Below are positions 45,553 to 64,000 of a stretch of 64,000 bases of DNA, in pieces. This stretch comes from Scedosporium boydii (Eukaryota > Ascomycota > Sordariomycetes > Microascales > Microascaceae). The position numbers and the translations under genes are program-made. The stretch is taken from assembly GCA_002221725.1 (NCBI GenBank), contig NJFT01000058.1, positions 62,001 through 126,000 of the forward strand, written 5' to 3'. Below the pieces are notes generated by a model, which saw only the letters and a program-made list of their open reading frames with translations, did not search any database and was not told the origin of the DNA. Every line of letters starts with the position of its first letter. Within the stretch, counting starts at the first letter, position 1.

Positions 45553-47400
45553 CACGATGCGCGTTATGACTCTGGTCTTCTTACCCTTTTTAAAATTGAA
45601 AAGAAGGTGAATTAAGGACTGAAGCTTCAACAGAATCAAATCCATCGATAACTCATAGCAGCACATGCACCAGAACCTATATATAAATTCTCAGAATCTC
45701 CTCTAGACCCTTACAACACCCCATCTCAGCAATTATGAACTAGATGTGACCAGTATTGGCCTTGTTCAACCAGTTCACATCTCCATAGTACGCCGGTGGA
45801 GCAAAAGGATTGAAGCGCAGGGTGTAAGCAGGTATGAGCAATATTGAGCACATTAGGACTCGAGGTCAGCCGCACAGTTTTGCCTGCTCTGGCCTTGCGG
45901 TTGGTGAACCCACACGCCCTAGTGTAACGACATCAGCAGTTGCCCAGTCGCTAGTCGTTATTCCCTGTGGGATCAGGCAACGCGGAAAGATGTTCTCTTC
46001 CCAGACCCACGCTGTTGGCGACCCCCATGCCTGGGAGGCATCTCAAAGAGGAAAATATCGAAAGTTGGGACTTGATACATCACCTGAAAACGGGCAGCGT
46101 CCGCAACCCAACGCGTGGGCGTTCTTTCTGGGACCCGAGGTATTGGTCAAGGCTTTTCTTTTCGTTCCGCTGGAGTAATTTAACACTGCTTTCTCGATCT
46201 TACGAGTACGGGGGGCCACTCCTCCGCGCATCCCTCGTGTGAGCAGAATTGTAACATGGCCCACGACTTTCGCAAGTTCTCGATAGGCACCGATTTCCTC
46301 CGTCGAATGAGAGTTTACCGTTACTTGACGTCCGGTGCCGTCCACATGCCTCGGGCCGCCATTTTTGGCAGCGTCCATCAAGGTTGAGGTCGTTATTACT
46401 ATTACGTCGTTGTCGATTGGTAGGGGCAAGCGAGCTGCAGGTGCCTTAACCTTGGCCCCGGTTTGACGACCTCTCTACTCGTGTCCGGTTACTACTGAAC
46501 CAAATAGTTGACGCAAGGAGTTTTAGCCTTCCAGTGGCATTCTAACGGGGGCATTCTCGGAACTTAGGCCGCGGTGAGCTGCGCAACACAGATGTTGTCC
46601 TGACAAGAGCGGAAAAGAGCAAGTTGACGGTCAGCCAACAATCCCGGCTACATCCACATCCCCAGTACATCTCATGTGCTCACGAAGCGAATGTGTCGGG
46701 ATGAATTTAAGGTGGGGACCGGTTCTGTCTCCCTCCGCAAGACGACCCTGTACGTAGTACTCCGAAGGCAAGGCTGCTCTCGCCTCGACTTCGATATCGT
46801 CGAATCTATGTTTTTCACTAAAATCTCTTCCTGTAGAGACTCATGCCGTGACAAGTCAAAGGGAAGGAGCACCTCTCAGTCCTCATACACATCCCGCTCC
46901 TTCCTCGAGACATCTCCGCTCCCCGTAGCCCTGGCGTGTGCTTCATGTACGAGTCCATGGGAAGAACTGCTAACCGAGCAGCTCAAGCACCAACACTGCG
47001 ACCAAATGGCCTAGCGCTCAGAAAGTTAGGAAAAAGGGTATTTTTCGTAGCTACCTGTCCAGCGGGGAATTGCTTCGTTCGAAGTCCAGCCAGGGCAGCG
47101 CATGCGATCTTTTTGTAATTTTTTTTTTTTTTTTTCATTTTTATTTTTCATCTTTCATTGAATTATTTGATGCTCGGATTCCAACATCTTCTCAGTTGTG
47201 GCGGGTTTTCCTAATATTGCCTTGAGATTTTGGAAAGATGGCCGCGTTCAGACGGAGGAGGGAGTGGTTAATATTGAAGTTCTGGAGGGGCGAGCATCGT
47301 ACGTCTACTCAATAGGAGCGGGATGCGGCGATACGGTGATAAGTCCCCTCAATTCAAACATAGATCCCTACTCGTGTTTACTCTATGCTTCTGATTCCAA
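45553..47400. other. Intergenic region between transporter and the ETP-like cluster
   Basis: About 1.85 kb with no supported gene; short frames on both strands lack conserved motifs. A T-rich run is at 47118-47151. It is a plausible left border of the cluster that follows. Confidence 0.5.
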
Positions 47401-48391
47401 CTACAGGTCATGGCCGATCTTCGGTGCCCTGTCCAAAACCAACTTGACCGCTGGGCGTGAGAGCATGTCCTGTGACCATTTGTCGATGTGAGGCCAGTCT
47501 TCGATGTTGACTTCAAACAACTTGAACATATACGGCATCGAGAAGGGCAAGTACGAAAGATCGGCAATAGTCGGGCGGTCCTTAAGAGCGATGTAGTTTT
47601 GTCCTGGTTCCGCAAGTCGCTTTTCTAGGATATCCCATTGTCGGAGGGTATCCTTGAGAAGCCTGTCCGAGGATTGTAATCCTCCATGATTAGTCTTTCC
47701 GTAGCCTGAGAGCTGATTGCTATAGACATTTGGACTCACTGTTCAACGGTTCTTGGTAACTGCACGGGATTCTGCCTGTTTGGGTAGCCACGGAGGAAGT
47801 ATAACCAGTACTTTGCGGTTGGCCTGCCAAGATTGCGCCCGTCCATCATAAGTGAATATTCTTCCTCAATCTTCAAGTATTTGACGGGTTCATTTGCGTC
47901 CCGGTAGATAAAACTCGGGGGGGATACTACTCACCCAAGTGCTGCGGTTTGGTACGCAGTCCAAGCGAACACACTCCCCTTTTCTGCGGCTGTCCTACCC
48001 ACCCAAGTACCCTGCTCATCGAAGCGTTCGCAAAGGTACTGCAGGCATGCGGTAGACTCGAATACGATGACTTCCTCGCCTGTGACAGGGTCTTTGTCTT
48101 TCAAGGCCGGCACCATCCTCTGCGGGTGTATCTTGAAGTACCACTCATCCTTCGTGTCGATGACAGACAGCACATGCGGAGCCCCGAGCTCGACGGCCAG
48201 GATCAGCGGTTTGATGTAGTTGATGTAAGAGGTTTGGTCCGCTAGAACCTGTCAGTAAGCCAGTCGGACGAAAACGAGAAACAAATCAAGTCGTGATATT
48301 CCACGGATGAAGACTAACCTTTGATGACGTACAACACCACATTCCGCCCATCCGACTCGATGTCTCTTTGAATGACCTTTCCCAGTCCCAT
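47401..48391 (-). CDS. Glutathione S-transferase, GliG-like
   Basis: Four exons, 48319-48391, 47935-48241, 47740-47823 and 47401-47662, give 241 residues. The N-terminal thioredoxin-like part has YFKIHPQRMVPALKD (the NPxxxVPxL glutathione site) and EVIVFESTACLQYLCERF (ES motif). The C-terminal helical part reads PTAKYWLYFLRGYPNR, RQWDILEKRLAEPGQ, ALKDRPTIADLSYLPFSMPYMFKLF and RPAVKLVLDR, which fits the fungal GST group that includes GliG. GliG adds two glutathiones to the oxidised diketopiperazine, bringing in the sulfurs of ETP metabolites. Identification as GliG-like rests on the family pattern plus neighbours. It is in tandem with the O-methyltransferase (217 bp apart). Confidence 0.85.
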
Positions 48392-48596
48392 GATGTCGGA
48401 CGTACTTTGGACCAGCGCAACGGATCTAGATCAACAATCGATAAGCACGACATGAAGAGGAGGAAATTAGGTTCTCTATTTACATTAATTAAAGTTACTT
48501 CATGTTCGATCCCAGCAAGGATGATATGGAGAGTTTGATGGATACGAACAAAAAGAAAATGTGAAAAGTACATAATATTGATTGATAAAATAAATA

Positions 48597-48605
48597 TCGG
48601 TCCGA
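48597..48605. promoter_or_regulatory. Palindromic TCGG-T-CCGA, possible Zn2Cys6 site
   Basis: About 206 bp upstream of the GST start and just after the O-methyltransferase stop. It resembles the TCGG-N3-CCGA site known for GliZ-type regulators, but with a 1-nt spacer, so it is only a candidate. Confidence 0.25.
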
Positions 48606-48608
48606 AGA

Positions 48609-50202
48609 TTAACGGGGCACTTCGCCACTGGCCCCATTGTGTCCGCCCGGGATGCCGGGCTTTTTACTCTCTGCTCCGGCCTGGACTTCATGAATGTCGA
48701 CAGGCTTGTCGTTTTCGACCTTAATTTTCTCACTTGCATTTTCAGACTGCTCGTTTTCCTCCTTGATGACCTGAACGCTGGCGGACTGGGTGGTCTCGGC
48801 ATCTGCATCCTGGTTCACCATTTCGGTCCTCTTGGTGCCCCCACAACAAACACCTTTCGGCGAGGGCGCAGGCCTCAGATCAATCGCCTGAACCCACGCA
48901 TTTCGCAACGGATGAATGCTGTGCGTCACCCATCCCGACTCAGCTGCCAAAGCCCTCCACTGCTTCTCCGTCCGCTCCTGCCCGTTGGCCGTCATCATCA
49001 TGTTAATGTCGCCGTACACAGAGAGCCTGCCGCTCCTACGGTCCGAAAGAACCGATTCGAGAATCACGAGCCGGCTTCGCGGACCTTCTTTGATGGCCGC
49101 CCTGATATTGCAAAGGATCTTCTCCGCGTCCGCGTCGTTCCAGTCGTGCAGTACCCACTTGATCGTGTAGGCAGTAAAAGATGGTATTTCCTCCAGGAAG
49201 TTCCCGGGGATTAGATGTGTGACGCGGGAACCGACGTCGCCGAACTGCCCTTCGGGCTTGAAGAACGGCCTAACGTGGTCGATGACGGCTGGCAGGTCGA
49301 ATATCGCACCGCGCATCGTGGAGTGGGCTCGCAGGAGCGAAGCGGTCAGCGCGCCTCCGCCACCTCCGATGTCCAACACGGTGGTATCGGCGAGTTCCTG
49401 CCACGGGTAATCCGACAATATTCCCGGTGCCATGGCCTTGGCACCGCCTCCGAGAGTCCGATGGAGTCGCGGCACCCAACCCTGCCGCTGGAAATAGGTG
49501 AACATGTCTTCGTCGGTGTCGAAGACTATCTGCGCCGCGGAACGGGTAGGCTTTTCTCCATCAGCTTTTACGGCTTCCGGAATGCCTCTGGCGATCTTGT
49601 AAAACTCGTTGCCATACAAGTCCACCCAGTTGCGCCACTGTGTCCAGTGGTCGCTCCGCAGGAGCTGCGAGACGTGGTTATTCGCGTAATGGTCGGTCGT
49701 CTCATTGTAGGTAAATATGTTGTTGGTGTACAAAGACCGCAGGATCTGTTTCAACCTGTCCGGTTTGGCATGAGCCAGTGCAGCCAAGTCGTCGAGCTTT
49801 AAGGGTTCTTGTCTCAAGTGGTCGGCGATGTTCAGATTAACCGCCGCAACTAAGCACTTTGTCGTCGTATATCCTGGACATGACTCTTAGAATCTACTTC
49901 GTACTCGACCTGCGAGTTCCCAATACGGCAGCTTCTTAGAACCCACCTAGAAAGTGATCCGCGAGTCGTAGAGGGGCCGGTTCAAGGAGATGCTCAATCG
50001 AACCAAGGAGGTCCACGACCTTCTCGGCTGCTGCTGAAACCTCTTTGTTTGGGAGACCGGTGTCATCGTGCAGGGATTTGAAGAGCTCTTCTTTTGTCGT
50101 TGGCTCGGTGAGAAGACCGTGGAATGCCTGCAGAGAGGCCTCGAGACCACGAAGTATGTGACCGAGTCTGGACGCAGACGTAGCCGCTGACGTTGGAGAC
50201 AT
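48609..50202 (-). CDS. SAM-dependent O-methyltransferase, GliM-like
   Basis: Exons 49947-50202 and 48609-49873 (73-nt intron) give 506 residues. An N-terminal helical dimerisation part (LADHFLGYTTTKCLVAAV, NIADHLRQEPLKLDDLAA) is followed by the SAM-binding motif TTVLDIGGGGGALTASLL, the AIFDLPAVIDHVRPFF block, and KWVLHDWNDADAEKIL, whose His is the usual catalytic base. This is the plant-type/fungal O-methyltransferase class that includes GliM of gliotoxin clusters. The neighbours (GST and CxxC oxidoreductase) support that role. Oddity: after NAWVQAIDLRPAP the protein continues for about 85 residues, acidic and low in complexity, with IKEE and IKVE (SUMO-like motifs). It is divergent from the oxidoreductase gene. 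Confidence 0.88.
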
Positions 50203-50610
50203 GATGGGAGCTGAGCGAGGAAAATCCCGTTATTCTGATTGGAAAATAATTAATTAATTTCGACAGGATGACTCCTATGATATAAGATATTATGATACTA
50301 ACGAAATACCAACACTATGTCGTAAGCCGCCCGCGAGTCTGCGTTCTCGGAGCCCGGAGACTTACGGGCAATCCAAAAGTCTCCGGGCCCAACATATCTG
50401 CGGGCCGTCTTGTCTGGACATCGGCCATTTCTGGGTCGCAAAATAAAAGGCCGCGTAAAAAGTGTATGCCCTTCTTCTATTCTCCCTGGTTTTCTTCCCC
50501 TCCAATTTTCGTTCCGTAGATTGGTCTTCATGCTGTCTCTATCTTCCCACTTCAATCCTCGCCCAGGACGCCTCTAATCAAAATAAGCACCCCAAACCGA
50601 CACGACCATC
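50203..50610. promoter_or_regulatory. Divergent promoter with 12-bp inverted repeat and CGG-N3-CCG
   Basis: 408 bp between the O-methyltransferase and oxidoreductase starts. GCCCGGAGACTT (50352-50363) and AAGTCTCCGGGC (50377-50388) are a perfect inverted repeat with a 13-nt spacer. TCGG-AGC-CCGG (50347-50357) overlaps it and differs by one base from the GliZ-type consensus TCGG-N3-CCGA. TAATTAATTAAT near 50248-50259 could act as an AT-rich core element for the leftward gene. Confidence 0.5.
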
Positions 50611-51661
50611 ATGTCCATCACCCCTCTTTTCGACGTCATCATCGTCGGTGGCGGAGCCGCCGGCCTGGCGACGGCAACAGGCCTTGCCCGCCAGCTCTAC
50701 AACACGGTGGTCTTCACCAATGACAATTACCGCAACGCCAGGGCCTCGCACATGCACAACTTCCCTACCTGGGACCACCAGCCACCGAGTGCCTTCCGCG
50801 CCAAGGCCAAGGAGGACCTGCTGGCTCGCTACAAGACGGTCCAGTTCGAGAGCACGGACATCACCAAGGTTCGGAAGACCGATGCCGGACACTTTGAAGC
50901 TACGGATGCGCAGGGCCGCTCGTGGACGGCTAGGAAGCTTGTCCTAGCTCACGGATCAGTAGACTCGTTCCCCGACATTCCGGGCTACACAGATTGCTGG
51001 GCGTATGGAATGTGAGTGAATATAAGTCGCGAAAAGAAAACACACAAATTCCGGCAAAAACAATGCTGATCCGTCATTCTAAAAACGTAGCTATCATTGT
51101 CTCTTCTGCCATGGGTACGAAGAACGCGGCCTCCCGTCATCGGGCGTCCTCTGTATCGGGCCACACTCCGGAGTCCCAGCGATGGCCCTCCACCAGTCTC
51201 GTATGGCCCGGCGGTTAACCGAGAACGTCACCATGTACACGAACGGAAACGCCGACCTCGCGGCTCAACTCAAGGAGCTTCTCGAGCAGGATAAAGATGC
51301 CAAGAGTGGCAGGATTCACGTCGTGGATCGCAAGATTGCCAAGTTTGCGCGGGGGACCAGCGAGGGGTCGGAAGTCGTTGTCACCTTCGAAGACGGAGAA
51401 AGCGTCACGGAGGGCTTCTTGGTACACCAGCCTAGCAGCCAGGCGAAGGACCCGTTCCCTCAGCAGTTAGGCTTGGAACTCACTCCTTCCGGTGACATCC
51501 AGACAACGCAGCCGTTTGGGGAGGCATCTGTGCCGGGCGTGTTTGCCGTAGGAGACTGTGCGACGCCGATCAAGGCCGTCGCGCAGGCGGTGGCAATGGG
51601 TGTTTTAGCTGCTGGGGGGCTTGCGTTCCAACTTGGAGCGGAGTTGGCTAAGGTCGAATAG
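50611..51661 (+). CDS. CxxC flavoprotein dithiol oxidase / thioredoxin-reductase-like, GliT-like
   Basis: Exons 50611-51011 and 51091-51661 (79-nt GTGAGT..TAG intron) give 323 residues, the size of GliT. The FAD-binding motif VIIVGGGAAGLATA is at residues 10-22. Exon 2 opens with IYHCLFCHGYEERG, so Cys137 and Cys140 form the redox CxxC pair; the codon before it is completed across the intron. SGVLCIGPHSG marks the second nucleotide-binding-like part, where NADPH residues are reduced in the dithiol-oxidase subgroup. GVFAVGDCATPIKAVAQAV is the C-terminal FAD motif. In ETP pathways this enzyme closes the disulfide bridge using oxygen and protects the producer. It is divergent from the GliM-like gene. 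Confidence 0.9.
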
Positions 51662-52120
51662 ATTTAATCGAGGTTACTTGCATGAAATATGATTCGTTTC
51701 TCCATGAAAAAAAGATATTTAAGTGATGGATGTGGTCCTGTGGACCGCTGTATCTACGCAAGGTTGCAGCGTTGCACTACTGTGAGGAAAAAATGACAAG
51801 GGAAATATGGTAAAAGAAAGGAGTGTTGCAATCGTCAATCCGCCTAGGCGCCTACCTATGCGGGCTTCTTGTTGCCTGGTCTTCCTCTTCCCATTCTCTC
51901 GCGTGGCTCCCAGGGGTATCTTTTGAAGGGACCCTGTCGCTCTCTCCAAGGCCTAGAATGCCCTCCCGCTCCTCAGCACCGTCTTATTCGTCTCCTTCGA
52001 TTTCGTCCTTTATGCAGGGCGTTTCTGCCCTCATGGGGTCCAGAACTCAACAGTGTACTTCTCGTCCGCGGTGCTCCCGTCTTTCCGGGGCCGAAAAAAT
52101 GTGAGGGAAAAAAGTAGGCG

Positions 52121-52131
52121 AAAAGAAAAAA
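52121..52131 (-). terminator. Pol III terminator of tRNA-Asp
   Basis: TTTTTTCTTTT on the minus strand immediately after the tRNA 3' end. Confidence 0.75.
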
Positions 52132-52213
52132 CTCTCCCTCGGGGAATCGAACCCCGGCCACCTGCGAATTGCTCCATGACAAGCAGGTATCCTGACCACT
52201 AGACCAAGGAAGA
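52132..52213 (-). tRNA. tRNA-Asp(GUC) with about 10-nt intron
   Basis: On the minus strand: acceptor TCTTCCT pairs with AGGGAGA, discriminator G. The D-arm region is GTCTAGTGGTCAGGAT, the anticodon stem CCTGC/GCAGG, and the loop TTGTCA-C carries GUC. The T-arm is CGGGG-TTCGATT-CCCCG. The extra 10 nt (52167-52176) after position 37 fit a tRNA intron, unusually short. Mature length is 72 nt. It sits inside the metabolite cluster, between oxidoreductase and aminotransferase. Confidence 0.93.
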
Positions 52214-52300
52214 TGTTATTTGATAGGATCCATTCCAGCACAAACTGAGCTGATGACACTAACAGATAAGACGCGATCTTCAGTTTTGCTTTATTTCCGT

Positions 52301-53900
52301 CTAGAACCCTAATGCCAGTTCGATCTTCTGAAGCCCATCCCAGAACATGTCTCGCGGCACTGCCACGGTGACTCTTGCCCAGAAACCGCCGTCTCCATCG
52401 CACCAACTAGATCCGCCAAAACTGCCTCCCGGAGCGACCATAACCCCTACTTGCCTCAATTTCTGAAGAATGTCACTCTTATCCTCCTTTCTGCCCAGTC
52501 GCACAAGCACGAACGGCCCCGCGTCGGGGGTGATGAAGGGAGTGCCCCACCGCTGGAATCGCGCAGCCGCCATCTCATGGGCTTTGGCGAGTCGAGCAGA
52601 CAGTTGGGAAATGAGATTCGGGAATTGAGGGGAGCGCAGAAGGTGTGTTGTGGCCAGCGAACTTAGTGAGGAGAGGTGCATGCTAGAAAGCAGGGCGACC
52701 GATTTTAAAATTAAGCGAGATTGTGGCGACTGGCTCACCAGAGCAGCCTACGAGGCGGTGTTTTCAAGTTAGAATGAATAATGCTTCATTTGGTTGGGCG
52801 GTCTCAGTGATGACTGATATTTATGAACTCACCATGCGAAGTCCGCTCGAGCATAGGTCTTTGCTGGTGCTCCATATGACATGCACCATGGCAGCATCTT
52901 CCATATCATCTTCCTCGTTTTTCTCCTTCCCCGGGGCGGTGCCGTTCAGTCTGCAGGGTCTCATTCTTTTCTTTGCCGGTGGCAGCTCCATTCCGGCCGC
53001 AGTTAGTGGTCGCTTCTTGCTACTTCCAACATTGCCGCTGTCAGTGACATCTTCGATCGGTAGCCTGTAGCCGTTCGTGCTTTCCTTCGTCGGGTCTAGA
53101 CTTAGGGCCGAAACGAACGGATTCCTGCCAATTTGACTTATGGCATACAGCTCATCCGAGATGTAGTGGAGGCACCTTTCCCTGCAGAACTCAATACATT
53201 CTCGGAGGACATGGGCAGGATAGCATTGCCCGAAGGGATTGTGTGGGTTAGTGATGACTAGGGCTTTAACCTTGGCCTTGTCTGGCACGGTATCGAGGGC
53301 CGAGAGTAGAGCTGGGAGGAGGCTTTGGCTTAAAGGACGTGAATGCTCGTCGAAACAGCCATTGTCCCAGCCTAGGTGCACCGGAACCACATTCACGCGA
53401 GGTCGGAGTTGGAAATGCAGGTTGAACCCATTCCAATACGGCACAGGAATCAGAACACTGTCATCTTCATTGCAAATGGTCGTAAGTAGCGCATCTAGAC
53501 AGTGGGTTGCGCCGGGTGTTGCCACAACATCATGGGGCCGAACCAGTTGGTGGGGATGGAAGTACTTGGTGAAGAACTCTGACAAGGAGTCGCGCAATTC
53601 TGCATCTCCACCAAGACCATGTGAGTATGAAAGGCTCTATGGTTGGATTGTCAGATTAAAATGTTGCCATTTCGGGAGAAGAGGAGAGTCCGTTGCGTGG
53701 TCGAAATGAATTACCTTAGACGAAATCCCTTTTTGAATGGCAGTCTTGTAGATTTCTTCAAGTTCCGGTCGGAGAAGCCAATTCTCAGCCGTGGCTAGGT
53801 CAATGCGGGACGACTTGTCCGAGAGAGCTATGTCAATTTTAGGAACGATGGAGGCAATCGTATCCCTCATCCGAGACGAAAGTTGGCTAAGATCCCCCAT
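52301..53900 (-). CDS. PLP-dependent aminotransferase class I, ACC-synthase-like, GliI-like
   Basis: Three exons, 53715-53900, 52833-53636 and 52301-52747, give exactly 478 residues. Family blocks in order: RIDLATAENWLLRPEL, SLSYSHGLGGDAELRD, ATPGATHCLDALLTTIC, PVPYWNGFNLHFQLRP, VITNPHNPFGQCYP (conserved Asn), HYISDELYAIS (Asp and Tyr of the PLP site), and STSKDLCSSGLRM with the Schiff-base lysine, about residue 321. GARV-like FWARVTVAVP holds the carboxylate-binding Arg. In gliotoxin synthesis GliI is a C-S lyase that frees the thiols after peptidase trimming. Oddity: residues about 244-312 are an extra low-complexity, charged insertion just before the lysine motif, with GSSKKRP and PPAKKRMRP clusters. 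The start ATG at 53900 follows an in-frame non-ATG leader. Confidence 0.88.
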
Positions 53901-54868
53901 GATGACGACCAAAAATCCACCTTGGAAACAAGCACTCTCCTGTGCGGTTCTCTAGTATCGGATCATTCGAGACGGTGAATACGAAGAAAAGTATCGCTTA
54001 ACACCACCCGATGCGCAAGACAACTGAGTATGTCGCTTCTATGTTTTACGTTGGGATCTCTGCAAACAAGACCCGCTTGCAGATCTAACGAAAGCCATCC
54101 AAACTGCAGGTTGAGTTTCCGGGAAAATTAATCGGGCCTAGCTGATGATCGGTGTGGCTCACCGCGACGAGCTCGGGATTCGGTGATTAGTTTGTGCCCA
54201 AAGACGTCAATTGATGATATTAGGGGAGCAAACATATCTTGGGAAATCCCCCAACCGAGTGTCGCGGGCATATCGGCGTTTGCTCATTAACTAGCTAAGC
54301 AGTATTCCGAAATTCGTTGAAAGTTCCGTCTGTACGTAATACCGGTCGCCTAGAGTGTAGGGCCGGCCGGGATTCATTCGGACAGGCACGCTCCGCCCAA
54401 CTACTACTACATTGGTGGCCGACTAGCCTTGACGGTCGCCGCATACCCACTCGGTCCGCTTTATGATATTGCTATTTCTTTAAGGAAGACTTCGAAGACG
54501 AGAGATCTTCGGTAACCGCACTGTGCTCGATGTTGCATCAAATCTTCGACCAGCATCCAGCCTCTTTTTCGGCCCAGATCCTTGAGAAGTTTGAAGACAA
54601 AGGAGACAGACTGCTACGCCATGATCTGCGCTTGGATCTTACCTAGTTTCCGTTTATGTGGCTTACTGGGCATCTCTGACTTGGTTGTCGTGTTGTAGTG
54701 GTATATCCCCTCAGTGGCGGCGTTCAATTTCATTACGAGGGAGCTGAGATGTCAACTCCTTGAAATGGTCAACACGGGCTATACAGCGGTCTGGTGGATA
54801 GTGGACAAGTCCGATGAAAGTAGATGTCTTGTCTCTCTAGTTCTTTTTCCATCCCCACTAAACCAGCA
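53901..54868. other. Intergenic region, no gene supported
   Basis: Between the aminotransferase start and the HET gene's 3' end. CGGTG-TGGCT-CACCG (54150-54164) is a small inverted repeat that could be a regulator site. No frame resembling a P450 or other cluster gene was seen. Confidence 0.45.
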
Positions 54869-56596
54869 TTAGTGAAGTGAGAATTGTTGCCAGACCTTCG
54901 GGTATCTCATGCCTTCTCCATCCATTAAACCATGGACGTAACATTCGCCTTTGAATAGGTAGTAAGAGCTCTCTTCACGTAGAATAAAAGGAACATGACC
55001 ACCGTGCAGTATACAGATTTTGTCTCCTTCTATCACGTCGAACCGGGCTAAACCCATGTATCCTTCACTTGAAAGAAACATACCTCGACCATTAAGTGCC
55101 ATGTGAATGAAGGTATCTGAAACGGCAGACTTATCCGCATTGCCCAGATCATGTCGAATAGGCCACGACGCGGCAAAGCCGCGTGCAGATCGTCCTTCAC
55201 GGATCTGGATGTCTGCTACCAGAGTATGAAGAAATGCTTCCTCTATGGATTCTCCTGTGTGGTATGTACTTCCAAGCTGCTCACCGACCCACGAATACCA
55301 AGCTTGAATGTTTGATACACTGAGCAGGTCGGCGAAATTTTCACCAAGTTTTGAAACTGTATCAAATACAGAACCCCGAAGGACCAAAACCTCTAGGTCA
55401 TTAGCTAGTTGAACCGATGGAAGAAAATTGCCACTTGCGTGGTACATTTTCTTTGAGCGAACATCGCTCGGTAATTCATACTTGATGAACGGTGTTGTTT
55501 CCAGCATCATCGACCAGTTGGGAGCCCAAGAAGGAGTGATTCGCTTGGATTCATAAGTAGGCGTAGGAGTTTTGAAGGACGACCAAAACCTCGAATCAGG
55601 GAGGGCTTCCTGACAATGTCCTAAGATATTTAACGTTCCGTCTGCTTCGATGAAGTTCTTTGTGAATTTTGCGTATACTTCATGCGGCGGGATTGAGTAA
55701 TCAGGATACATAGCCTCTCTGTGCGTTCGGATTGCCAGCCCTGCTAATGCAAAGATCTTGTCCCTCGGGTCTGATGCTCCGCATGCACGTGAGTTATCAA
55801 GGAGCTCGAGCAAATTTGAGCCGTGAGCCGAAGAGCTTCTTCGGGTCTTCAGCTGATCTAGAGCTATGGCTCTGTGGAGGTGCTGAATAATATCAGGAGT
55901 GTTGAAGTTTTGCTGCATGGCTTGTTGGATGATGGGTCGCGCAAGAAATTTCGCCATTGCTACAAGTCCAAGGAAGTCGGTCTTGTCTTTGCCACACCAC
56001 ACATAGGTGTTGTTGGCACATGTTGCTTCTTGGATAATCCAGACTCGATTCCACCAAGGACGTTGAAAAAGATGGTGTATAGCTATGGTAGATCTGTGGT
56101 CCAAATTCGGAGCTAAAAATTGACGGTCCGCAGCCGATAGGGAGGCTCTCGCCCAACGTCGGTCAACCTGACCGATTGCGCCCATTGCATAGCCGCTGTC
56201 CTCGGCCTCTTCACCAAGCCATACGATAACTTGCTTTGATTTCTCATAGATTTCCTTCATTCTCCGCACTTGGGTGCTTTTCTCAACGTCGTCTTGTTGA
56301 TTGATGCAGATTGCGTCGATCCAGACTAGAATATCTTCTCCGTCCTCTGTCTCTTCACACAGGCGATGAAGGGCTTTAGAAAGATTTTTCCCGATCGGAA
56401 ACTGGCAGCCATCAAGCATGATTGGAGTACCGTGCTGATTTCCCCAAGTGTATGAGAGAGCCGTGTAAGTGACACCCTCTTCGAAAGGAACATGTCGAAG
56501 AGTATATTTGACTTTGTCCGATTTAGGATCCCGCGAAATCTGCAGAATCCGAATTTCTTGCGGACCTAATTCTTCGTATTTGTAATGTTCAACCAT
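54869..56596 (-). CDS. Heterokaryon-incompatibility (HET) domain protein, intact
   Basis: An open frame of 575 residues runs from MVEHYKYEELGPQEIRILQI; a further in-frame ATG at 56707 would add 37 residues less like the family. HET blocks are complete: YTALSYTWGNQ, LHRLCEETEDGEDILVWIDAICINQQD, VRRMKEIYEKSKQVIVWLGEE, WWNRVWIIQEATCANN, ASDPRDKIFALAGLA. The tail GYMGLARFDVIEGDKICILHGG and PFILRE is the typical C-terminal end. HET proteins mediate allorecognition and incompatibility cell death. In contrast to the decayed copy at 5.6-7.3 kb, no stop or shift is seen. It sits between the aminotransferase and the NRPS of the ETP-like cluster, on the same strand as both; no catalytic role in the pathway is expected. 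Confidence 0.85.
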   Translation of the reverse strand: MVEHYKYEELGPQEIRILQISRDPKSDKVKYTLRHVPFEEGVTYTALSYTWGNQHGTPIMLDGCQFPIGKNLSKALHRLCEETEDGEDILVWIDAICINQQDDVEKSTQVRRMKEIYEKSKQVIVWLGEEAEDSGYAMGAIGQVDRRWARASLSAADRQFLAPNLDHRSTIAIHHLFQRPWWNRVWIIQEATCANNTYVWCGKDKTDFLGLVAMAKFLARPIIQQAMQQNFNTPDIIQHLHRAIALDQLKTRRSSSAHGSNLLELLDNSRACGASDPRDKIFALAGLAIRTHREAMYPDYSIPPHEVYAKFTKNFIEADGTLNILGHCQEALPDSRFWSSFKTPTPTYESKRITPSWAPNWSMMLETTPFIKYELPSDVRSKKMYHASGNFLPSVQLANDLEVLVLRGSVFDTVSKLGENFADLLSVSNIQAWYSWVGEQLGSTYHTGESIEEAFLHTLVADIQIREGRSARGFAASWPIRHDLGNADKSAVSDTFIHMALNGRGMFLSSEGYMGLARFDVIEGDKICILHGGHVPFILREESSYYLFKGECYVHGLMDGEGMRYPKVWQQFSLH

Positions 56597-56707
56597 GCTC
56601 GCAGCAGTGACATAGTATATGACGACGTCGGATTTCGTATTAGATGTTTTGACTCTGAAACTGGCCGAGTCTAGTAATGTAGCAATTTGCAAAATACAAG
56701 TTTTCAT

Positions 56708-58021
56708 TCAAGAATAAGTTTTGGTGCAGATCTTGCGTGGGTCGATGATGCGGATGCACAGGAATAGGAAGCAATGTGGAGACTCGAGCTCCTCTGAGAC
56801 GACGGGGTTCAATGTGTTTCTTATTACGCTGCTAGATTTAGGCAGCCTCTATTATATCTGCATTCCTCAAGCTATCACGTCCGTCAGTTTGGGGGTCCGC
56901 CTTAAAGATCCGCCTTGATTATTTGTCTACTGAATAATATAACCCTTGCATTTCTCCAACAAGGTCGACAATGGTGCTGTGATTGGGTTTGATGCCTAAA
57001 AGGACGACATCTTGGACGGGTCCTGACCTCGTAAACTTGCCCCAGGGCTTCAATCTGTCTGTATTTATTGGATTATAGTAGGGCGTCTGCGTAGGTGGTG
57101 CGTAACACGGCATTCGGCTGGCTGGAGATACAGCAAATGAAACTTCGCCAAGTGGCTGGCAAACCGAGACGGGAAGGAATTTAATAGCCAGACATGGAAA
57201 AACAACGCGGCGGGAATGGTCAACCTGTCCGGAAACCCACCGTCAGACTCAGGGAAACGCTGCCAGGTTCGCCTCACCCTTTGCACCTGCTTATCGACCA
57301 ACCGTATGGTTTTTTGCATTCCCACCAGTACCAGACCGGCGTCACGCCTGGATCCCGGCTTGGGCATGAAGGCGTTACCCCCTTCGTCCCCGCCGCCCCA
57401 TCTGTATATCTTTTCGAACTAGTTATTCGACCTGCCCACATGCCTGACCCTGGATGGCCCATTGGCTACATCTGCACCCTAACCACCAAGTTGGTCCAGT
57501 CGAGGGCTATCATCGAGTGATAGGCTGAGCAAGTCCGACGCCAGGCGACGCAACGGTCGACCTCACCGAGTGCCGCTAGCATTACGAGGGGAACGGGGTA
57601 AAGAGGAGAATGCGGTACGAAGTACACTACGTGGTGATTGCCTCGCCTAATATGACGACGCCGTCCGTCGTGCGGCGCAGACTAGAACCAGAAACATCGT
57701 CCTTTGCTTCGAGACGGAGGTCGACCTGGTGAAAAATTCATGGTCAGGAGTCAGGACCACTGTACGAAGTAGTCCGGGGGTCCACGCTTTTTTTTTTTTC
57801 TTTTTTTTTTTTTTTTCTTCCCGACCCCGCCTGGTAAATCAGTTCGCAACCAGGCACCACTAGGATTTCTTGATCAGCAGCAACCTCCTGCTCCGCGTTT
57901 TGATTTCCGATTTCCGACCTCACAGTAGAACATAGACCCCAAGCCGAGAATGTTTATCATTTAAATCCATTGCTTATTTTATCTAACATTTTTAACGAAA
58001 AATTGAAACAATATGACGCAG
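56708..58021. other. Intergenic region with poly-T tracts
   Basis: About 1.3 kb with no supported gene. Two T-rich runs lie at 57788-57816. Nothing resembles a thiolation domain or a P450 downstream of the NRPS. Confidence 0.5.
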
Positions 58022-61000
58022 TTAGCCCAACTCTGCCAAAGGTCTACCCAGAACCCACTCCTCGTCAAGCACAGATCCGTTGCACTGCTTGTCAACCTCA
58101 TCCAAGGCTACGTCATCATCCAGAACCGACCCTCCTGCGAGAAGCTTCATCCAGGTTGAAACGCGTTGTAGAAAATCTGTAATGTCCTTCGCCGAAAGGC
58201 ATATGTTATCGTACTCGATCCTCAGCACGATGCTCCTCGCGGACAATGCCATGAACTCGCACATCAGCTTAAACTTGGCCCCTGAAGACCATGTGAAGCA
58301 GGGTTCGATTCCAGGAATGTCCATGCACAGCTCTCTCAACATTTGTGACTCGTGGAAAGTCACCATCACATCGAATAGTGGATGGTCAGGATAGTCAGGC
58401 GTGATGGACATTAGATCAAGTAGCTGATGCCACGGGAGGCCGTGAGCGAGGGCGGACTGGGTCGACTTTCGTACGGTGGCGAGGAACGCCTCTCTGTTAT
58501 CCGTGGGCCGCCAGTCGTGCTTGATGCGCACTGGGAGAGGTTGGAGGAATAGGCCAACTGTGTCGGCGTGCTCCGCGGACTCTCGGTTCATGAAGGGGAC
58601 GCCGAGAACTACGTCCAACCGACCATGGGGATCACTGGGGTTCGAGTGTCCGTCAAGGGCTAGCGCCAATGCGACGGCAGCCAAGGCTAGCTGCTGCAGG
58701 CTGATGTTTCCGGCGGACCCATACCGTAATATTGTCCTACTTGTGTCTTCATCGAACCGGAAGATGGTGGAGGTGCCCTGGTAACTGGTTCTCCGCTCTA
58801 CATTTCGTAAAAGCCTCGGCTGTTGAGGCAGCTCCTCGAGGTATTGACGCCAGAAGTTGCGTTGATCTTCGGACAAAGTTGCGCCCCATAAGGTAGGATC
58901 TGGGTAAACCGCTCGAGGAGGGCAGAGATGGTGCCCGTGATAAGCCAAGGATACTTCACGAAGAATCAGAGCCATGGTGGTATAATCTGCGACGATGTGA
59001 CTCATAACCACAAGGACCTCCTTCCCAGTGATGAGAACGCGAATGGGCTGCTCATGGTCCAACTTATGCGGGCGATTGAGCTCAGTCCAAATGTTGATCG
59101 CCGCCAGGTACTGAGCTCTAGGGCAGTGCCCGGTAAGTCTGCGACAGTGTTTCGCCCGGCTAGTAGGCCGATTAGGATGGTATAAACTGCGGAGGACTTC
59201 ATGCCTCCGTAGTACCACGTTGAAGGCATCCTCGAGTAGGCGGCTGTTCACCTGATCCGACTTCATTCGCCCGAGGAACGCCACGTTGAAGCATGAGGTA
59301 CCAGCGCCTACCCAGGACTTCTCCAACCATTCTTGTTCAATGGGCGCCACATCAGCAAGAGTCGCTGGACCAAGGTCAAAAGGTTGAGGCTTCTTAACCT
59401 CAATAATCTCATCGATGGCGCGCCCCAATGCCTCAATCGTAGAATTTGAGATAACTGTCTTGAGGGGAACTGGAACACCGAGCTTCTTCGTGAGGTATCT
59501 GGCCAGTTTGGTTTGCTCTAGAGAGTGACCTCCCATTTCAGCAAGGCTTTGCTGCCTATTCACTGTGATATCTGAAGGTGTTTTCTGGAGAACGGCCAAG
59601 AACGCCGATGCAACAGCCCTCTCGGTATCAGTAGCAAGAGCGAGGCCCCCAACGAAGTTCTTCGACACGTCCGCAGACGCGATGGCTTTGTAGTCAATCT
59701 TCCCCGCAGAGGTGGTGGGTATCCGATCCACGGCAATGAGCTGACTTGGAATTGCATATCTCGGAAGTGTATCAGCAATTTTGACGCGTAGTTCGACGAG
59801 GTCTACATCCGCCGGTTGGACCATGGCCACGAGTTCATCGCCAGATTCGCCACGGCATGTAATAGCCACAGCCTGGACCTCGGGGATATCCCTCGCGATT
59901 CTGATCTCCAAGTCATTGAGGTCGAGTCGGTACCCTCGAAGCTTGACTTGGCGATCGTTTCTCCCGACGTACACAATTTCGCCCTCTTCGCTCCAGTAGC
60001 CCAGATCACCTGAGTCATACATTCTCTCTCCGTTGCCCATTATTGTGTCAGGCAAGAATCGTTCTTCTGTCTGCAGCGGCATTCCGAGATAGCCCTGGGA
60101 GACTTGCACGCCCGCAAGGTGGATACGCCCGATCATGCCCGGCTGTGCTAACGTCCGGCTCGCGTTGAGGATGTAAAGACGGGTTGTGGGGTTCGGGACG
60201 CCAATGGTCACTGGCAGACCCGGCAAAAGTCTTTTGATGGTGGCACCGCATGTCGCCTCGGTTGGCCCGTACATGTTGTAGAGCGTTTTGGAAGCCGACC
60301 ACTTATCAGCGACGCTCTGCGGAACGGGCTCCCCGACGAGGTAGACCTGAATGAGCCACGGTTGTTAGCTGCGAACTTGCACGAGCCGAAGAATAAAATG
60401 TGGACACTTACCCATTCAAGTTTGGGAAAATCACCCGGATCCAAGGCACGCGCAACCGAAGGCGTGAGGATCGCCGAGTCAGCCCTATTGAGCGGTTCCA
60501 GAGAGTCTGCTCCGGCAGGAAGAACCAGCGTGGCGCCGTAAGTGAGCGCCGAGAATATCTCGTGGATACTACCGTCGAACGCAACCGACATTATCTGCGA
60601 GATGCGCACCCCTGGTTTGGCATTCAAGCGCACAGTCAGATCGCTTTGGAACGCGACCAAGCCGGCATGTATGCACAAGACGGGTTTGGGAACTCCAGTA
60701 GATCCAGACGTGAAACAGACGTACGCGGCACTCCACGGTTGCGGGGAGGTTCGTCGCGCAAATGTGGTCGGTTCGCTTCGAGAGGCAGACTCGACTGAGA
60801 AACTTGACTCCTCTTTGCATGCTGGCGAGTTGCGAAATATAAGACGCTGTTCATCCGTACTTGTGATTATTGCTGTAGCACCAGCTGAACAAATCATATT
60901 GTCTCGGAGCTTTGCTGGGAGGAAAGGATCGAGAGGGCAATATGCACATCCAGCTCTCAGAACACCCCAGATAGCACCAATCCAGTTCAAGGATTTGTCC

Positions 61001-62994
61001 GCATGTACGCAAACCACGTCACCGGGAGACGTCATCGAGGAGAGTTTGTGAGCGACTTGATTGGATATGATATCAAGCTCACAGTAGGAGAGCGTAGCGT
61101 CACCCTTTTCCACCGCCGTGACATTGGGGTGAGAATCTGCAATTCCCTCGAATAGTATCACTAAATCTTGCGTGACAGAAGGTCTTGTGGTGAGACCAGA
61201 AATGCAGTTGCCCCATTTCATCAGCCGGGCATGGGAAGGACAGGAGAGGAGACTCTTCATGACATTCCCGACTGTTGCCTGCGGGTTCATCAGGAGCGAA
61301 AGGGCCTGCTCATAACAATTCACTACCAAAACCATATCACGTCGGTTGAATCGATCAGAGTGGAAGTCAAGCTTAGCCGTCCTGAATCCCTTAACCGTGA
61401 TACTGATGGGGACTTGAGACCGCTGTGTTGTATGGATTTCGGTCGGACTGAACGGGTTGCGTTCCAGCTCAGCAGGCTCCGGCATCTCCACGGATAGAGC
61501 AGAGTCATATTCCCGAGTGAATCCGTTGTCGGTGGTGGTCCAGCAATGCGTCTCTAATTCCACCAAGTCGCGGAACAAACTTGTCAGAAATTCCCCTACG
61601 CTGGTGTGCCTAGCAAGCTTGACGTGAAGAGGCAGCACATTGATGAGCGGACCGATGGTCTCAAGTGACCCGGGGATGGTAAGATTGCGGCCGTTCAGAA
61701 CTGCACCAAATACGGCGTCATCTGAGTCGGAAAATGTGGCAACGACGAGAGCCCATGCAGCGTAAAAGAAGGCGGTGGGGGTGACATTGGCTAGCCTTGC
61801 CGTTGACATCAACTCGTCCGCGAAGTCTTGAATATCGAAATTCAGGGTTTCAATTCCCAGACCCTCCTCTTCCCGGTTGGATTCAGTTGAAGTAGTCGTC
61901 GGGTCAGGAAGTAAAAATTCCCCTTTCGCTTCTGGATGCTGGCCCAGGGTTTTGCGCCAAAAGGCATCACCATCGGCCTTGTTCGTCCGCTGATAATGTC
62001 GAAGCTCCGAGGCCCAGTCCCAGAATGAAGGGCCCGGCTCGACTATCAATCCACTGGCGAGAGCTCTCACTTTGGCCATGAAGCCCTGGAGAGAGCACGC
62101 ATCGATGAAAGCGTGATGAACCCTCCAGGTAATTTTCGACATGGGTTTATCGTCCTTGCCGGTGTCACAGGTCGTGACCTCGAGCGAGAAGCCCATCGCC
62201 GCTGCATTTCCCTGAGCTTCTGGGAGACCATTCGGTAATGTTTGCTTTGTTGGGACTCCCCTCCTCGAGGAATCTCTAGGCTGTGTTGACACCAAATCCC
62301 TGAACCAAGAACCGTGAAAGATGGATTCGAACTCCAGAGCTGCGTTCCACGCCGAAAGGAGAGCTGAGATATTCTCTGAGGGGTGATATTCGACATATGT
62401 AATCATATTGGCGCTCGAATGAGTGAAACTTCCGTGAATCAGAGAAAGCTGCATCTCTGTAAGAAGGTCGGCAGTCTGATGGGAGGCCGGGATCGTCTTA
62501 GTTTCAGCCATTGGAGCATGGCCGTTGGCTGCAAGTTCCATTCGATGTGGTGGAAGTGGGAACTTCTCAGTGATAGCCCTGGTAGGCAGAGCTGGGACGC
62601 CATTGCGCGTCATGATATCTTTTAGTGGTGGGGAGATGACAGATGGGTGTAAAGCCGTGGGTAGAGTATACCTAGGCGAGGTCGAGTGCGGTCGGTCATC
62701 TTTCGTTCCCTGAACTCTGGGAGACTTGAGTTTGATATCACGGAGCAAACTACTCAGGCACGGGCTGGTAAGTATCCCCTCCCGTGTCACGTCGTATCCC
62801 CGTGCCGCAAGAGACGATCTTAAGATGATGGCCTTGATTGAGTCTCCGCCATTCGCGATAAAACTGGACTTGACGTCAATCTCATCGACACATCGCGCCA
62901 AGGCTACCGACACATAGTCGAGGATCTCGGGGTTGATGGAGGATTCCGCCATGACGTTAGCCATTCTAGGAGCATCTATAACTTTCACGCGCAT
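58022..62994 (-). CDS. Non-ribosomal peptide synthetase, T-C-A-T-C (GliP-like, lacking first A and last T)
   Basis: Exons 60412-62994 and 58022-60346 (65-nt GTAAGT..CAG intron) give exactly 1635 residues. Order: T1 with FIANGGDSIKA (Ser about 52); C1 with VHHAFIDAC (about 292-300); A with FTSGSTGVPKP, FDGS (the Asp that anchors the substrate amino group), MYGPTEATCG, YDSGDLGYW, GRNDRQVKLRGYRLD and SAGKIDYKA (catalytic Lys about 1077); T2 with MGGHSLEQ (Ser about 1136); C2 with MSHIVADY (about 1310-1316). GliP-type synthetases are A-T-C-A-T-C-T. Here the first adenylation and the last thiolation domains are absent, and no released thioesterase domain is seen. The first ATG in frame is at 62994. 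Only about 670 bp separate it from the divergent dipeptidase gene, so a roughly 1.5-kb A domain cannot be upstream. The family role is to join two amino acids into a cyclic dipeptide. Confidence 0.9.
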
Positions 62995-63665
62995 GATGGG
63001 AAGGGCTAGACGCCAGAGCAACAGCGCATAGGCTGCAGCTGGAGATGGTAATTTATGACTGGGGTAAGATGAAATTGGTGCTTTGGATCTTTTACCGTTT
63101 GCAGACTTGAACTCCTAGCAGGGATTTATACATAGCACTATCCACGAGGCCGCCGATGCATCGGTTACAGCTCATATGCACCAGTTAGAAAACGACGCAA
63201 CCTGACTCCCGTGCCGGTAACACAGGCCGGCTTGCTAGAGATAGAGGGAGAAGGGAAAGAAGAGGCCAGGGCCTTAGTGGATCTACCTGGCTAGCTTAAC
63301 GGCAGCCACAGAAGGAGACAGGCCGGAAAGAGCTTGAAGTGGATAGGTCGGATTTCAAGCAACTGCAGCCCCTACTAGTCCACTTCAACGGACCGTAACT
63401 AGGCCGATGCTGAAATGGAAATCCGGGAGACACGCTCGAAGCTCAGGGTCATATTACGGTTCTGTTCGTAATAGTAAGTATCCCCAGTGCCCCTTCTTGT
63501 GAAAAGCGAGGTTGCATAAGATACTTCATTGCGTCTCTATGCAGACTTTTCAGTTTCGTTTTGTACAATGCCAATTCCGAGACATACCGCATCATAATCC
63601 ATTAATGATTGTTTCCTTGTTCGGCCGGTGCCCCAATCCCATCTAGCTACGTCCAATGGTGAACT
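62995..63665. promoter_or_regulatory. Divergent NRPS/dipeptidase promoter with 12-bp palindrome
   Basis: 671 bp between divergent starts. CCGATGCATCGG (63153-63164) is a perfect palindrome with everted CCG..CGG half-sites, as Zn2Cys6 regulators often bind; GGCCGATGC recurs at 63412-63420. TCGGCCGG is at 63621-63628. On the NRPS strand the frame stays open for some codons above 62994 without an ATG. Confidence 0.45.
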
Positions 63666-64000
63666 ATGAACTCTAACAACAACACCTCTAACGACCAGAT
63701 GATGCCGGATATCGACCAGATCCTGCGCAGCGTCCCACTAGCAGGTCCGTGAGAAGACAAGATTGCGTTTAGCCATGAGAGAGCCCCTACCAAATGACGC
63801 AAGAGACCATGGCTGACTGCTCCATGCTTTGAATAGACGGCCACAATGACTTTGCATGGATGATTCGAGGCTGGCTGCAAAACCAGCTTGACCCTCTCAG
63901 CGCAAAGGACTTAGAGGATATGCCAATCGGTCAGACTGATCTACGGCGGCTGAAGAAGAGTCGGATCGGCTGCCAATTCTGGAGTGCCTTTGTCCCATGG
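63666..64000 (+). CDS. Membrane-dipeptidase-type metallopeptidase, GliJ-like (partial)
   Basis: Exon 1 (63666-63744) starts [19 protein letters not shown]; a 92-nt GTCCGT..TAG intron leads to exon 2 at 63837, which runs off the window. The junction reads [23 protein letters not shown] carries the His-x-Asp zinc ligands of renal-dipeptidase-type enzymes, and [25 protein letters not shown] matches the next conserved block (TDxxRLxxGxVGxQFWS). In gliotoxin biosynthesis GliJ trims cysteinyl-glycine from the bis-glutathione adduct. It is divergent from the NRPS, as expected for a co-regulated pair. No signal peptide is seen, unlike secreted animal dipeptidases and like GliJ. The remaining three-quarters of the gene lie to the right. 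Confidence 0.88.

What the first reader, a model, noticed from the sequence alone, without database searches (positions are those of the whole stretch)
47401..64000. Epipolythiodioxopiperazine (ETP)-type gene cluster
Six families that together define the sulfur chemistry of gliotoxin-type pathways lie within 16.6 kb: GST, O-methyltransferase, CxxC dithiol oxidase (CLFC), ACC-synthase-like aminotransferase, NRPS and zinc dipeptidase. What is seen: the motifs and gene order. What is known: GliP, GliG, GliJ, GliI, GliT and GliM act in sequence in gliotoxin synthesis. Inference: this locus makes, or once made, a disulfide-bridged or S-modified cyclic dipeptide. P450, GliK, N-methyltransferase and a Zn2Cys6 regulator are not in the window.
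Basis: partly seen in the sequence, partly recalled or inferred. Interest (0 to 1): 0.88.

Follow-up and report, generated by a model that had tools for sequence, protein, structure and literature searches.

The report
Already published boydine gene cluster

Summary
The GST, oxidoreductase and dipeptidase are nearest to GliG, GliT and GliJ among solved structures. The NRPS is T-C-A-T-C with one adenylation domain, unlike two-A GliP.

The genome is Scedosporium boydii IHEM 23826: contig C86 is exactly 151,073 bases, the published N50, and C1 is 520 kb, the published maximum. PMC12881047 Table 1 puts the boydine cluster on contig 58 of that assembly at 101,768-167,415; the window is C58:62,001-126,000. 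By family, order matches S. apiospermum for 15 of 15 genes and orientation for 14 of 15. So it is already known. Small additions: the A domain and the PKS cMT and KR domains, absent from that paper's S. boydii row, are present; a HET gene, a chitinase and a LysM gene lie inside the interval.

The parts
43768..45690 (-). MFS transporter ORF (stop to stop); position and orientation match SAPIO_CDS1833 of the published boydine cluster
   Evidence: Pfam MFS_1 5.5e-17; Table 2 of PMC12881047
47401..48391 (-). GliG-type glutathione S-transferase (BoyG), exons 48391-48319, 48241-47935, 47823-47740, 47719-47401; 260 aa
   Evidence: splice model; best PDB match GliG 5.5e-55; Pfam GST_N_2 3.4e-8 and GST_C 6.7e-6
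48609..50202 (-). O-methyltransferase (BoyM), exons 50202-49947 and 49885-48609; 510 aa with a low-complexity C-terminal tail
   Evidence: Pfam Methyltransf_2 1e-32 and Dimerisation 4.7e-12
50611..51661 (+). GliT-type dithiol oxidase (TrxR of the boydine cluster), exons 50611-51011 and 51091-51661; 323 aa, CLFC redox motif
   Evidence: best PDB match GliT 4ntc 2e-101; tree
52301..53900 (-). ACC-synthase-like aminotransferase / C-S lyase (BoyI), exons 53900-53715, 53636-52833, 52747-52301; 478 aa in this model
   Evidence: Pfam Aminotran_1_2; 58% identical to an I. caudata and 57% to a P. oryzae protein, 31% to A. clavatus GliI
58022..62994 (-). NRPS (BoyP), T-C-A-T-C, one 65-base intron at 60411-60347; 1635 aa in this model
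   Evidence: Pfam Condensation, AMP-binding, PP-binding (the first T domain was seen by its GGDS motif); motifs and ten-residue pocket code
63666..64000 (+). M19 zinc dipeptidase (BoyJ), 5' part; continues to window-frame position 65236 in L009. Further right in the same frame: GGCT-like 65777-66692 (-), P450 67296-68844 (+), Zn2Cys6 about 70700-72154 (+), methyltransferase from about 73241 (+), P450 74669-76450 (-), MBOAT about 77144-78471 (+), DUF7136 85208-86266 (+), PKS from 88540 to beyond 96545 (-, 5' end not placed)

Best explanation
This is the boydine biosynthetic cluster of Scedosporium boydii IHEM 23826. Steps: the single A domain of the NRPS loads the same amino acid, published as phenylalanine, onto both T domains; C1 forms the peptide bond and the terminal C domain releases cyclo(Phe-Phe). 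A P450 hydroxylates the ring, the GliG-type GST adds two glutathiones, GGCT and the dipeptidase trim them, the PLP lyase frees the thiols, and the CxxC oxidase can close the disulfide. A second P450 and methyltransferases tailor the molecule, and the PKS plus MBOAT acyltransferase supply the acyl chain of boydines B-D. Shown here: gene content, order, domains, motifs and kinship. Inferred from published families: every catalytic step and the product.
For: Assembly identity: C86 is 151,073 bases and C1 520,229, equal to the N50 and maximum published for IHEM 23826. PMC12881047 Table 1 puts the cluster on contig 58 (NJFT01000058.1) at 101,768-167,415; the window is C58:62001-126000. By family, gene order equals the S. 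apiospermum table for 15 of 15 genes and orientation for 14 of 15. The NRPS layout is T-C-A-T-C, and 10 of its 11 best relatives are 1528-1713 aa long and match 96-99% of it; the eleventh, 1962 aa, is fused to an aminotransferase. The ten-residue code DGHIYVMCGK is identical in 10 of 14 aligned relatives, DGHVYVMCGK in 3, and different in 1. GliT, GliG and GliJ are the best PDB matches. PKS pieces carry KS, AT, DH, MT, ER, KR and ACP domains. PMC6737921 section 13 states that boydin A and related compounds were described from S. boydii.
Against: No expression, knockout or metabolite data are available here. The DUF7136 gene lies in the opposite orientation to the published one, and a chitinase, a LysM gene and a HET gene lie inside the interval, although the paper calls synteny in S. 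boydii rigorously conserved. The GGCT-like protein is below the Pfam cut-offs. The paper notes that the aranotin-related compounds found in Scedosporium carry no disulfide, so the role of the oxidase is not shown. No Scedosporium name appears among the listed homologues, so identity to the S. apiospermum proteins was not measured.
Confidence: 0.93

Rival explanations
1. A gliotoxin-type cluster making a Phe-Ser ETP, as the comparison with Gli genes suggests.
For: GliT, GliG and GliJ are the nearest solved relatives of three of its enzymes, and all six Gli-type families are present.
Against: The NRPS has one A domain, not two, and no terminal T domain was found. The 671 bases between its start at 62994 and the dipeptidase start at 63666 are too few for a further A domain. 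Ten of its 11 best relatives are 1528-1713 aa long, and in the eight printed the first T motif lies within the first 51 residues, so the one-A layout is not peculiar to this genome. A PKS is present.
Confidence: 0.02
2. A decayed or non-functional copy: the NRPS lost its first A domain and a HET gene broke into the cluster, so that nothing is made.
For: No first A domain; HET gene between aminotransferase and NRPS; published antiSMASH calls for this strain lack the A domain and two PKS domains.
Against: The one-A layout is shared by relatives. The NRPS motifs looked at are present, the gene models made for GST, OMT, oxidase, aminotransferase, NRPS and GGCT read without internal stops, and the A, cMT and KR domains are present in the DNA. 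The exact splicing of both P450s, the dipeptidase, the second methyltransferase, the MBOAT gene and the PKS was not worked out.
Confidence: 0.04
3. An acetylaranotin or aspirochlorine cluster proper, as antiSMASH predicts for Scedosporium genomes.
For: Same T-C-A-T-C NRPS layout as AtaP (from the paper); antiSMASH predicted aspirochlorine for S. boydii.
Against: Oxidase and P450, and aminotransferase, methyltransferase and GST, are separate genes here, whereas the papers describe fused AtaTC and AtaIMG; both GliT-like loci found in the genome are CxxC (CLFC, CLYC), not the CxxH/CxxQ type that aspirochlorine needs per the paper; a PKS is present.
Confidence: 0.01

Closest known systems
Boydine cluster of Scedosporium apiospermum IHEM 14462 (SAPIO_CDS1819-1833; PMC12881047)
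   Same: By family, 15 of 15 genes in the same order and 14 of 15 in the same orientation, one-A-domain NRPS, PKS with the same domains, CxxC oxidase, 277-aa GGCT-like protein in both
   Different: DUF7136 gene in the other orientation; larger gaps holding a HET gene, a GH18 chitinase and a LysM gene (4121 bases between aminotransferase and NRPS, against 2,885 computed from Table 2)
Boydine cluster listed for S. boydii IHEM 23826, contig 58 (PMC12881047, Table 1)
   Same: Same assembly and contig as the window
   Different: The paper's automatic calls lack the NRPS A domain and the PKS cMT and KR domains; all three are found here by Pfam
Acetylaranotin cluster (ata) of Aspergillus terreus
   Same: One-A T-C-A-T-C NRPS and the same set of sulfur enzymes, according to the papers
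   Different: No PKS there; AtaIMG and AtaTC are fused proteins there; the AtaY function is unclustered in Scedosporium (all from the papers)
Gliotoxin cluster (gli) of Aspergillus fumigatus
   Same: GliG, GliJ and GliT are the closest solved structures; GliK- and GliZ-type genes present
   Different: GliP has two A domains and a third T domain; different dipeptide; absence of a PKS there is recalled

Membership tests
ETP (epidithiodioxopiperazine) cluster | Diketopiperazine-forming NRPS with a terminal condensation domain | tested here: met
   T-C-A-T-C; terminal C motif SHIVADY, S/H-HxxxD in all 15 aligned rows
ETP (epidithiodioxopiperazine) cluster | GliT-type dithiol oxidase with CxxC | tested here: met
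   CLFC motif; best PDB match GliT 2e-101
ETP (epidithiodioxopiperazine) cluster | GliG-type GST | tested here: met
   Best PDB match GliG 5.5e-55, next other protein 7.5e-13
ETP (epidithiodioxopiperazine) cluster | GliJ-type dipeptidase | tested here: met
   Best PDB matches are GliJ entries, 2.9e-43 for the second part of the protein
ETP (epidithiodioxopiperazine) cluster | GliK-type GGCT | tested here: inconclusive
   Weak in Pfam, AIG2_2 8.6e-4 and GGACT 8.2e-3, both under the cut-off; no NCBIfam hit; length 277 aa and position equal the published S. apiospermum gene
ETP (epidithiodioxopiperazine) cluster | GliI-type C-S lyase | tested here: met
   Aminotran_1_2; relatives include two named GliI proteins at 31 and 32% identity
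ETP (epidithiodioxopiperazine) cluster | Product carries a di- or polysulfide bridge | not testable with these tools
   Needs chemistry; the paper says known Scedosporium compounds of this kind lack a disulfide
Boydine cluster | 15 genes SAPIO_CDS1819-1833 in order | tested here: met
   By family, 15 of 15 in order, 14 of 15 in orientation; orthology by sequence to the S. apiospermum proteins not tested
Boydine cluster | Single A domain of the Phe-predicted group | tested here: met
   One A domain; pocket code shared with T. curvatum, I. caudata and S. implicatum, species the paper puts next to the S. apiospermum NRPS. Phe specificity itself is from the papers
Boydine cluster | PKS with KS-AT-DH-cMT-ER-KR-ACP | tested here: met
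   Each domain found by Pfam in separate open frames, ER as zinc-binding dehydrogenase
Gliotoxin cluster | A-T-C-A-T-C-T NRPS | tested here: not met
   One A domain and no terminal T domain found
Acetylaranotin cluster | Fused AtaIMG and AtaTC proteins, no PKS | tested here: not met
   Five separate genes and a PKS
Aspirochlorine cluster | Second oxidoreductase with CxxH/CxxQ, plus halogenase | tested here: not met
   Two GliT-like loci found in the genome, CLFC and CLYC, one on another contig; the halogenase was not searched for

The most novel reading that the evidence does not exclude
The native end product in S. boydii is a disulfide-bridged aranotin-polyketide hybrid that has not been isolated: the CLFC oxidase and the sulfur genes look intact, while the described compounds lack the bridge. 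The paper already raises opening of the bridge during extraction, and methylation of the thiols, as a speculation.
Probability: 0.25. Interest if true: 0.35.

Novelty: already known. Interest (0 to 1): 0.13.

Why it matters
The modest gain is a correction: the published automatic domain calls for S. boydii (no A domain; PKS without cMT and KR) look like gene-model artefacts, so this species, from which boydines were described, appears to have the full architecture.

Tried and rejected
Truncation of the NRPS was considered first, because the first A domain is missing, and rejected: 10 of its 11 best relatives are 1528-1713 aa and match 96-99% of it, and the motifs recur. A gliotoxin product was rejected on the domain layout. 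The loop with KKR-type basic stretches in the aminotransferase looked like a nuclear signal; basic loops are also seen in I. caudata and C. caudatum and less so in P. oryzae, and the published S. apiospermum protein is shorter (442 aa, three introns). In-frame candidate introns of 114 and 126 bases with a weak donor would remove the loop, so I make no claim. A CxxC tally by pattern over the 120 listed oxidase relatives matched 77 of 120; the other 43 did not fit the pattern, which was too strict, so the tally is not used. NCBIfam gave nothing useful: no hit shown reached its cut-off (25 of 50 shown for the oxidase, 2 for the MFS, none for the GGCT). The tree used 29 of the 120 listed relatives (621 found), chosen by me by name; I left out two short ones that I had first picked (P0008, P0110). 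No tree was made for the GST or aminotransferase. The O-methyltransferase had only general structural relatives among the 60 of 90 shown. PMC10694956 (passages only) and a text search for the contig accession (listing) gave no second source for the contig.
Full report
What is there. The window is C58:62001-126000 of a 42.9 Mb genome in 442 contigs. The nearest solved relatives by sequence are GliT for the oxidoreductase, GliG for the GST and GliJ for the dipeptidase (only its second part was given). The aminotransferase finds plant ACC synthases in the PDB (only its middle exon was given; that they are plant enzymes is recalled) and GliI-named proteins among public sequences. The O-methyltransferase has only general structural relatives.

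To the right. The adjacent contig pieces hold, in order: the rest of the dipeptidase, a 277-aa GGCT-like protein (GliK type; Pfam scores below the cut-off), a P450, a Zn2Cys6 regulator with spacing Cx2Cx6Cx6Cx2Cx6C, a class I methyltransferase, a second P450, an MBOAT protein, a GH18 chitinase with a chitin-binding domain, a DUF7136 gene, a LysM gene and a reducing PKS. Of the PKS open frames listed, eight were scanned; together these show KS, AT, DH, methyltransferase, ER (as zinc-binding dehydrogenase), KR and ACP. The frame L012:1095-1553 was not given, and the 5' end of the gene was not placed. The first P450 is weak in its first part (22.7 bits, just under the cut-off of 22.8) and clear in its second. 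For the second P450, the methyltransferase and the MBOAT protein one of the two parts scanned had no Pfam match. Exact splicing of both P450s, the dipeptidase, the second methyltransferase, the MBOAT gene and the PKS was not worked out.

Which genome. PMC5597752 (whole text read) gives the S. boydii IHEM 23826 assembly as 43.3 Mb, 587 contigs from 0.5 to 520 kb, N50 151,073. Here C86 is exactly 151,073 bases, C1 is 520,229 and C442 is 10,021, so small contigs seem not to be held. PMC12881047 (outline, abstract, passages, part 1 of sections 4, 10 and 15, and sections 9, 11, 12 and 13 read) lists the boydine cluster of this strain on contig 58, NJFT01000058.1, 101,768-167,415. The features described here span C58 from 105,768 (MFS) to beyond 158,545 (PKS).

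Comparison. Against Table 2 of that paper (S. apiospermum), all 15 genes occur here, judged by family, in the same order and 14 of 15 in the same orientation; the DUF7136 gene is reversed. The gap between aminotransferase and NRPS is 4121 bases against 2,885 computed from Table 2, and holds a HET gene here. The paper calls synteny in S. boydii rigorously conserved, so these differences are either not in its figure or were not counted. An earlier paper, PMC6737921 (passages and section 13 read), had already described the S. apiospermum cluster, the T-C-A-T-C layout of AtaP, a Stachelhaus prediction of Phe, and the description of boydin A and relatives from S. boydii.

NRPS. One A domain, two T and two C domains. 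The A domain aligns over its length with bacterial A domains of known structure. The motifs GGDS, HHxxxD, FTSGSTG, NMYGPTE, YDSGDL, AGKIDYK, GGHS and SHxxxD are present. In C1 the glycine that usually follows HHxxxD is alanine; the six closest relatives also lack it (A or S), the other eight keep it. With pocket positions placed by motif from recall of the GrsA numbering, the code reads DGHIYVMCGK: identical in 10 of 14 aligned relatives, DGHVYVMCGK in 3 (P. oryzae, C. musicola, C. caudatum) and DGHMYALIGK in 1 (Phyllosticta). A 65-base intron splits the A domain, which may explain why the paper's antiSMASH row for S. boydii shows none. Likewise the KR domain is split by a short stretch with intron-like borders, and that row lacks KR and cMT.

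Tree. With 29 chosen relatives, the oxidase forms a clade of 7 rows (support 100/98) with C. musicola, T. curvatum, I. caudata, S. implicatum, P. oryzae and C. caudatum, then T. virens (97/91). The paper names the first six species as having the proteins closest to the S. apiospermum NRPS. Against a simple story of one shared cluster, the two oxidases of Ramularia collo-cygni and the one of Zymoseptoria tritici in this tree fall outside the clade, although the paper counts clusters of these species as boydine clusters; I did not check that these three proteins are the cluster members.

Second cluster. C322 carries a second GliT-like gene (45 and 44% identical in two exons) beside a two-A NRPS, an aminotransferase, an aromatic prenyltransferase, a P450-like frame, a GST and an MFS transporter (the aminotransferase and P450 there are read by eye). 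This resembles the ETP10275 cluster described for S. apiospermum.

Verdict. The finding is correct and already known. Catalytic steps and product are inferred from the published families; nothing here measures them.

Noticed in passing
window 54869-56707 (-): HET-domain gene (open frame of 612 aa) between the aminotransferase and NRPS genes; the published S. apiospermum table has consecutive gene numbers and a shorter gap there, so it may be an insertion in S. boydii.
   Followed up: partly
L010:7818-9998 (-), continuing into L011, and L011:3541-4170 (+): GH18 chitinase with chitin-binding domain and a two-LysM gene lie between MBOAT and PKS, flanking the DUF7136 gene, which is reversed relative to S. 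apiospermum.
   Followed up: partly
G000:C322, L018 and L019: Second ETP-type cluster with a two-A-domain NRPS, CLYC oxidoreductase, aromatic prenyltransferase, GST and MFS; resembles the published ETP10275 (clapurine-like) cluster.
   Followed up: partly
window 52833-53636 (-): Aminotransferase loop with KKR-type basic stretches, variable among relatives; may be protein or partly an unspliced intron.
   Followed up: partly
window 48391-48609: Only 217 bases separate the methyltransferase stop from the GST start; the genes are reported as fused (BoyMG) in other strains and species, but read as two here.
   Followed up: no
P0039, P0040, P0065 (public relatives): Oxidases of Ramularia collo-cygni and Zymoseptoria tritici fall outside the supported clade of this oxidase, although the paper counts clusters of these species as boydine clusters; cluster membership of these three was not checked.
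   Followed up: partly
NRPS C1 domain, about window 62100: HHxxxD is followed by A or S instead of G in the query and its six closest relatives, and by G in the other eight aligned.
   Followed up: no
window 52132-52213 (-): A tRNA-Asp (GTC) gene sits between the oxidase and the aminotransferase.
   Followed up: no
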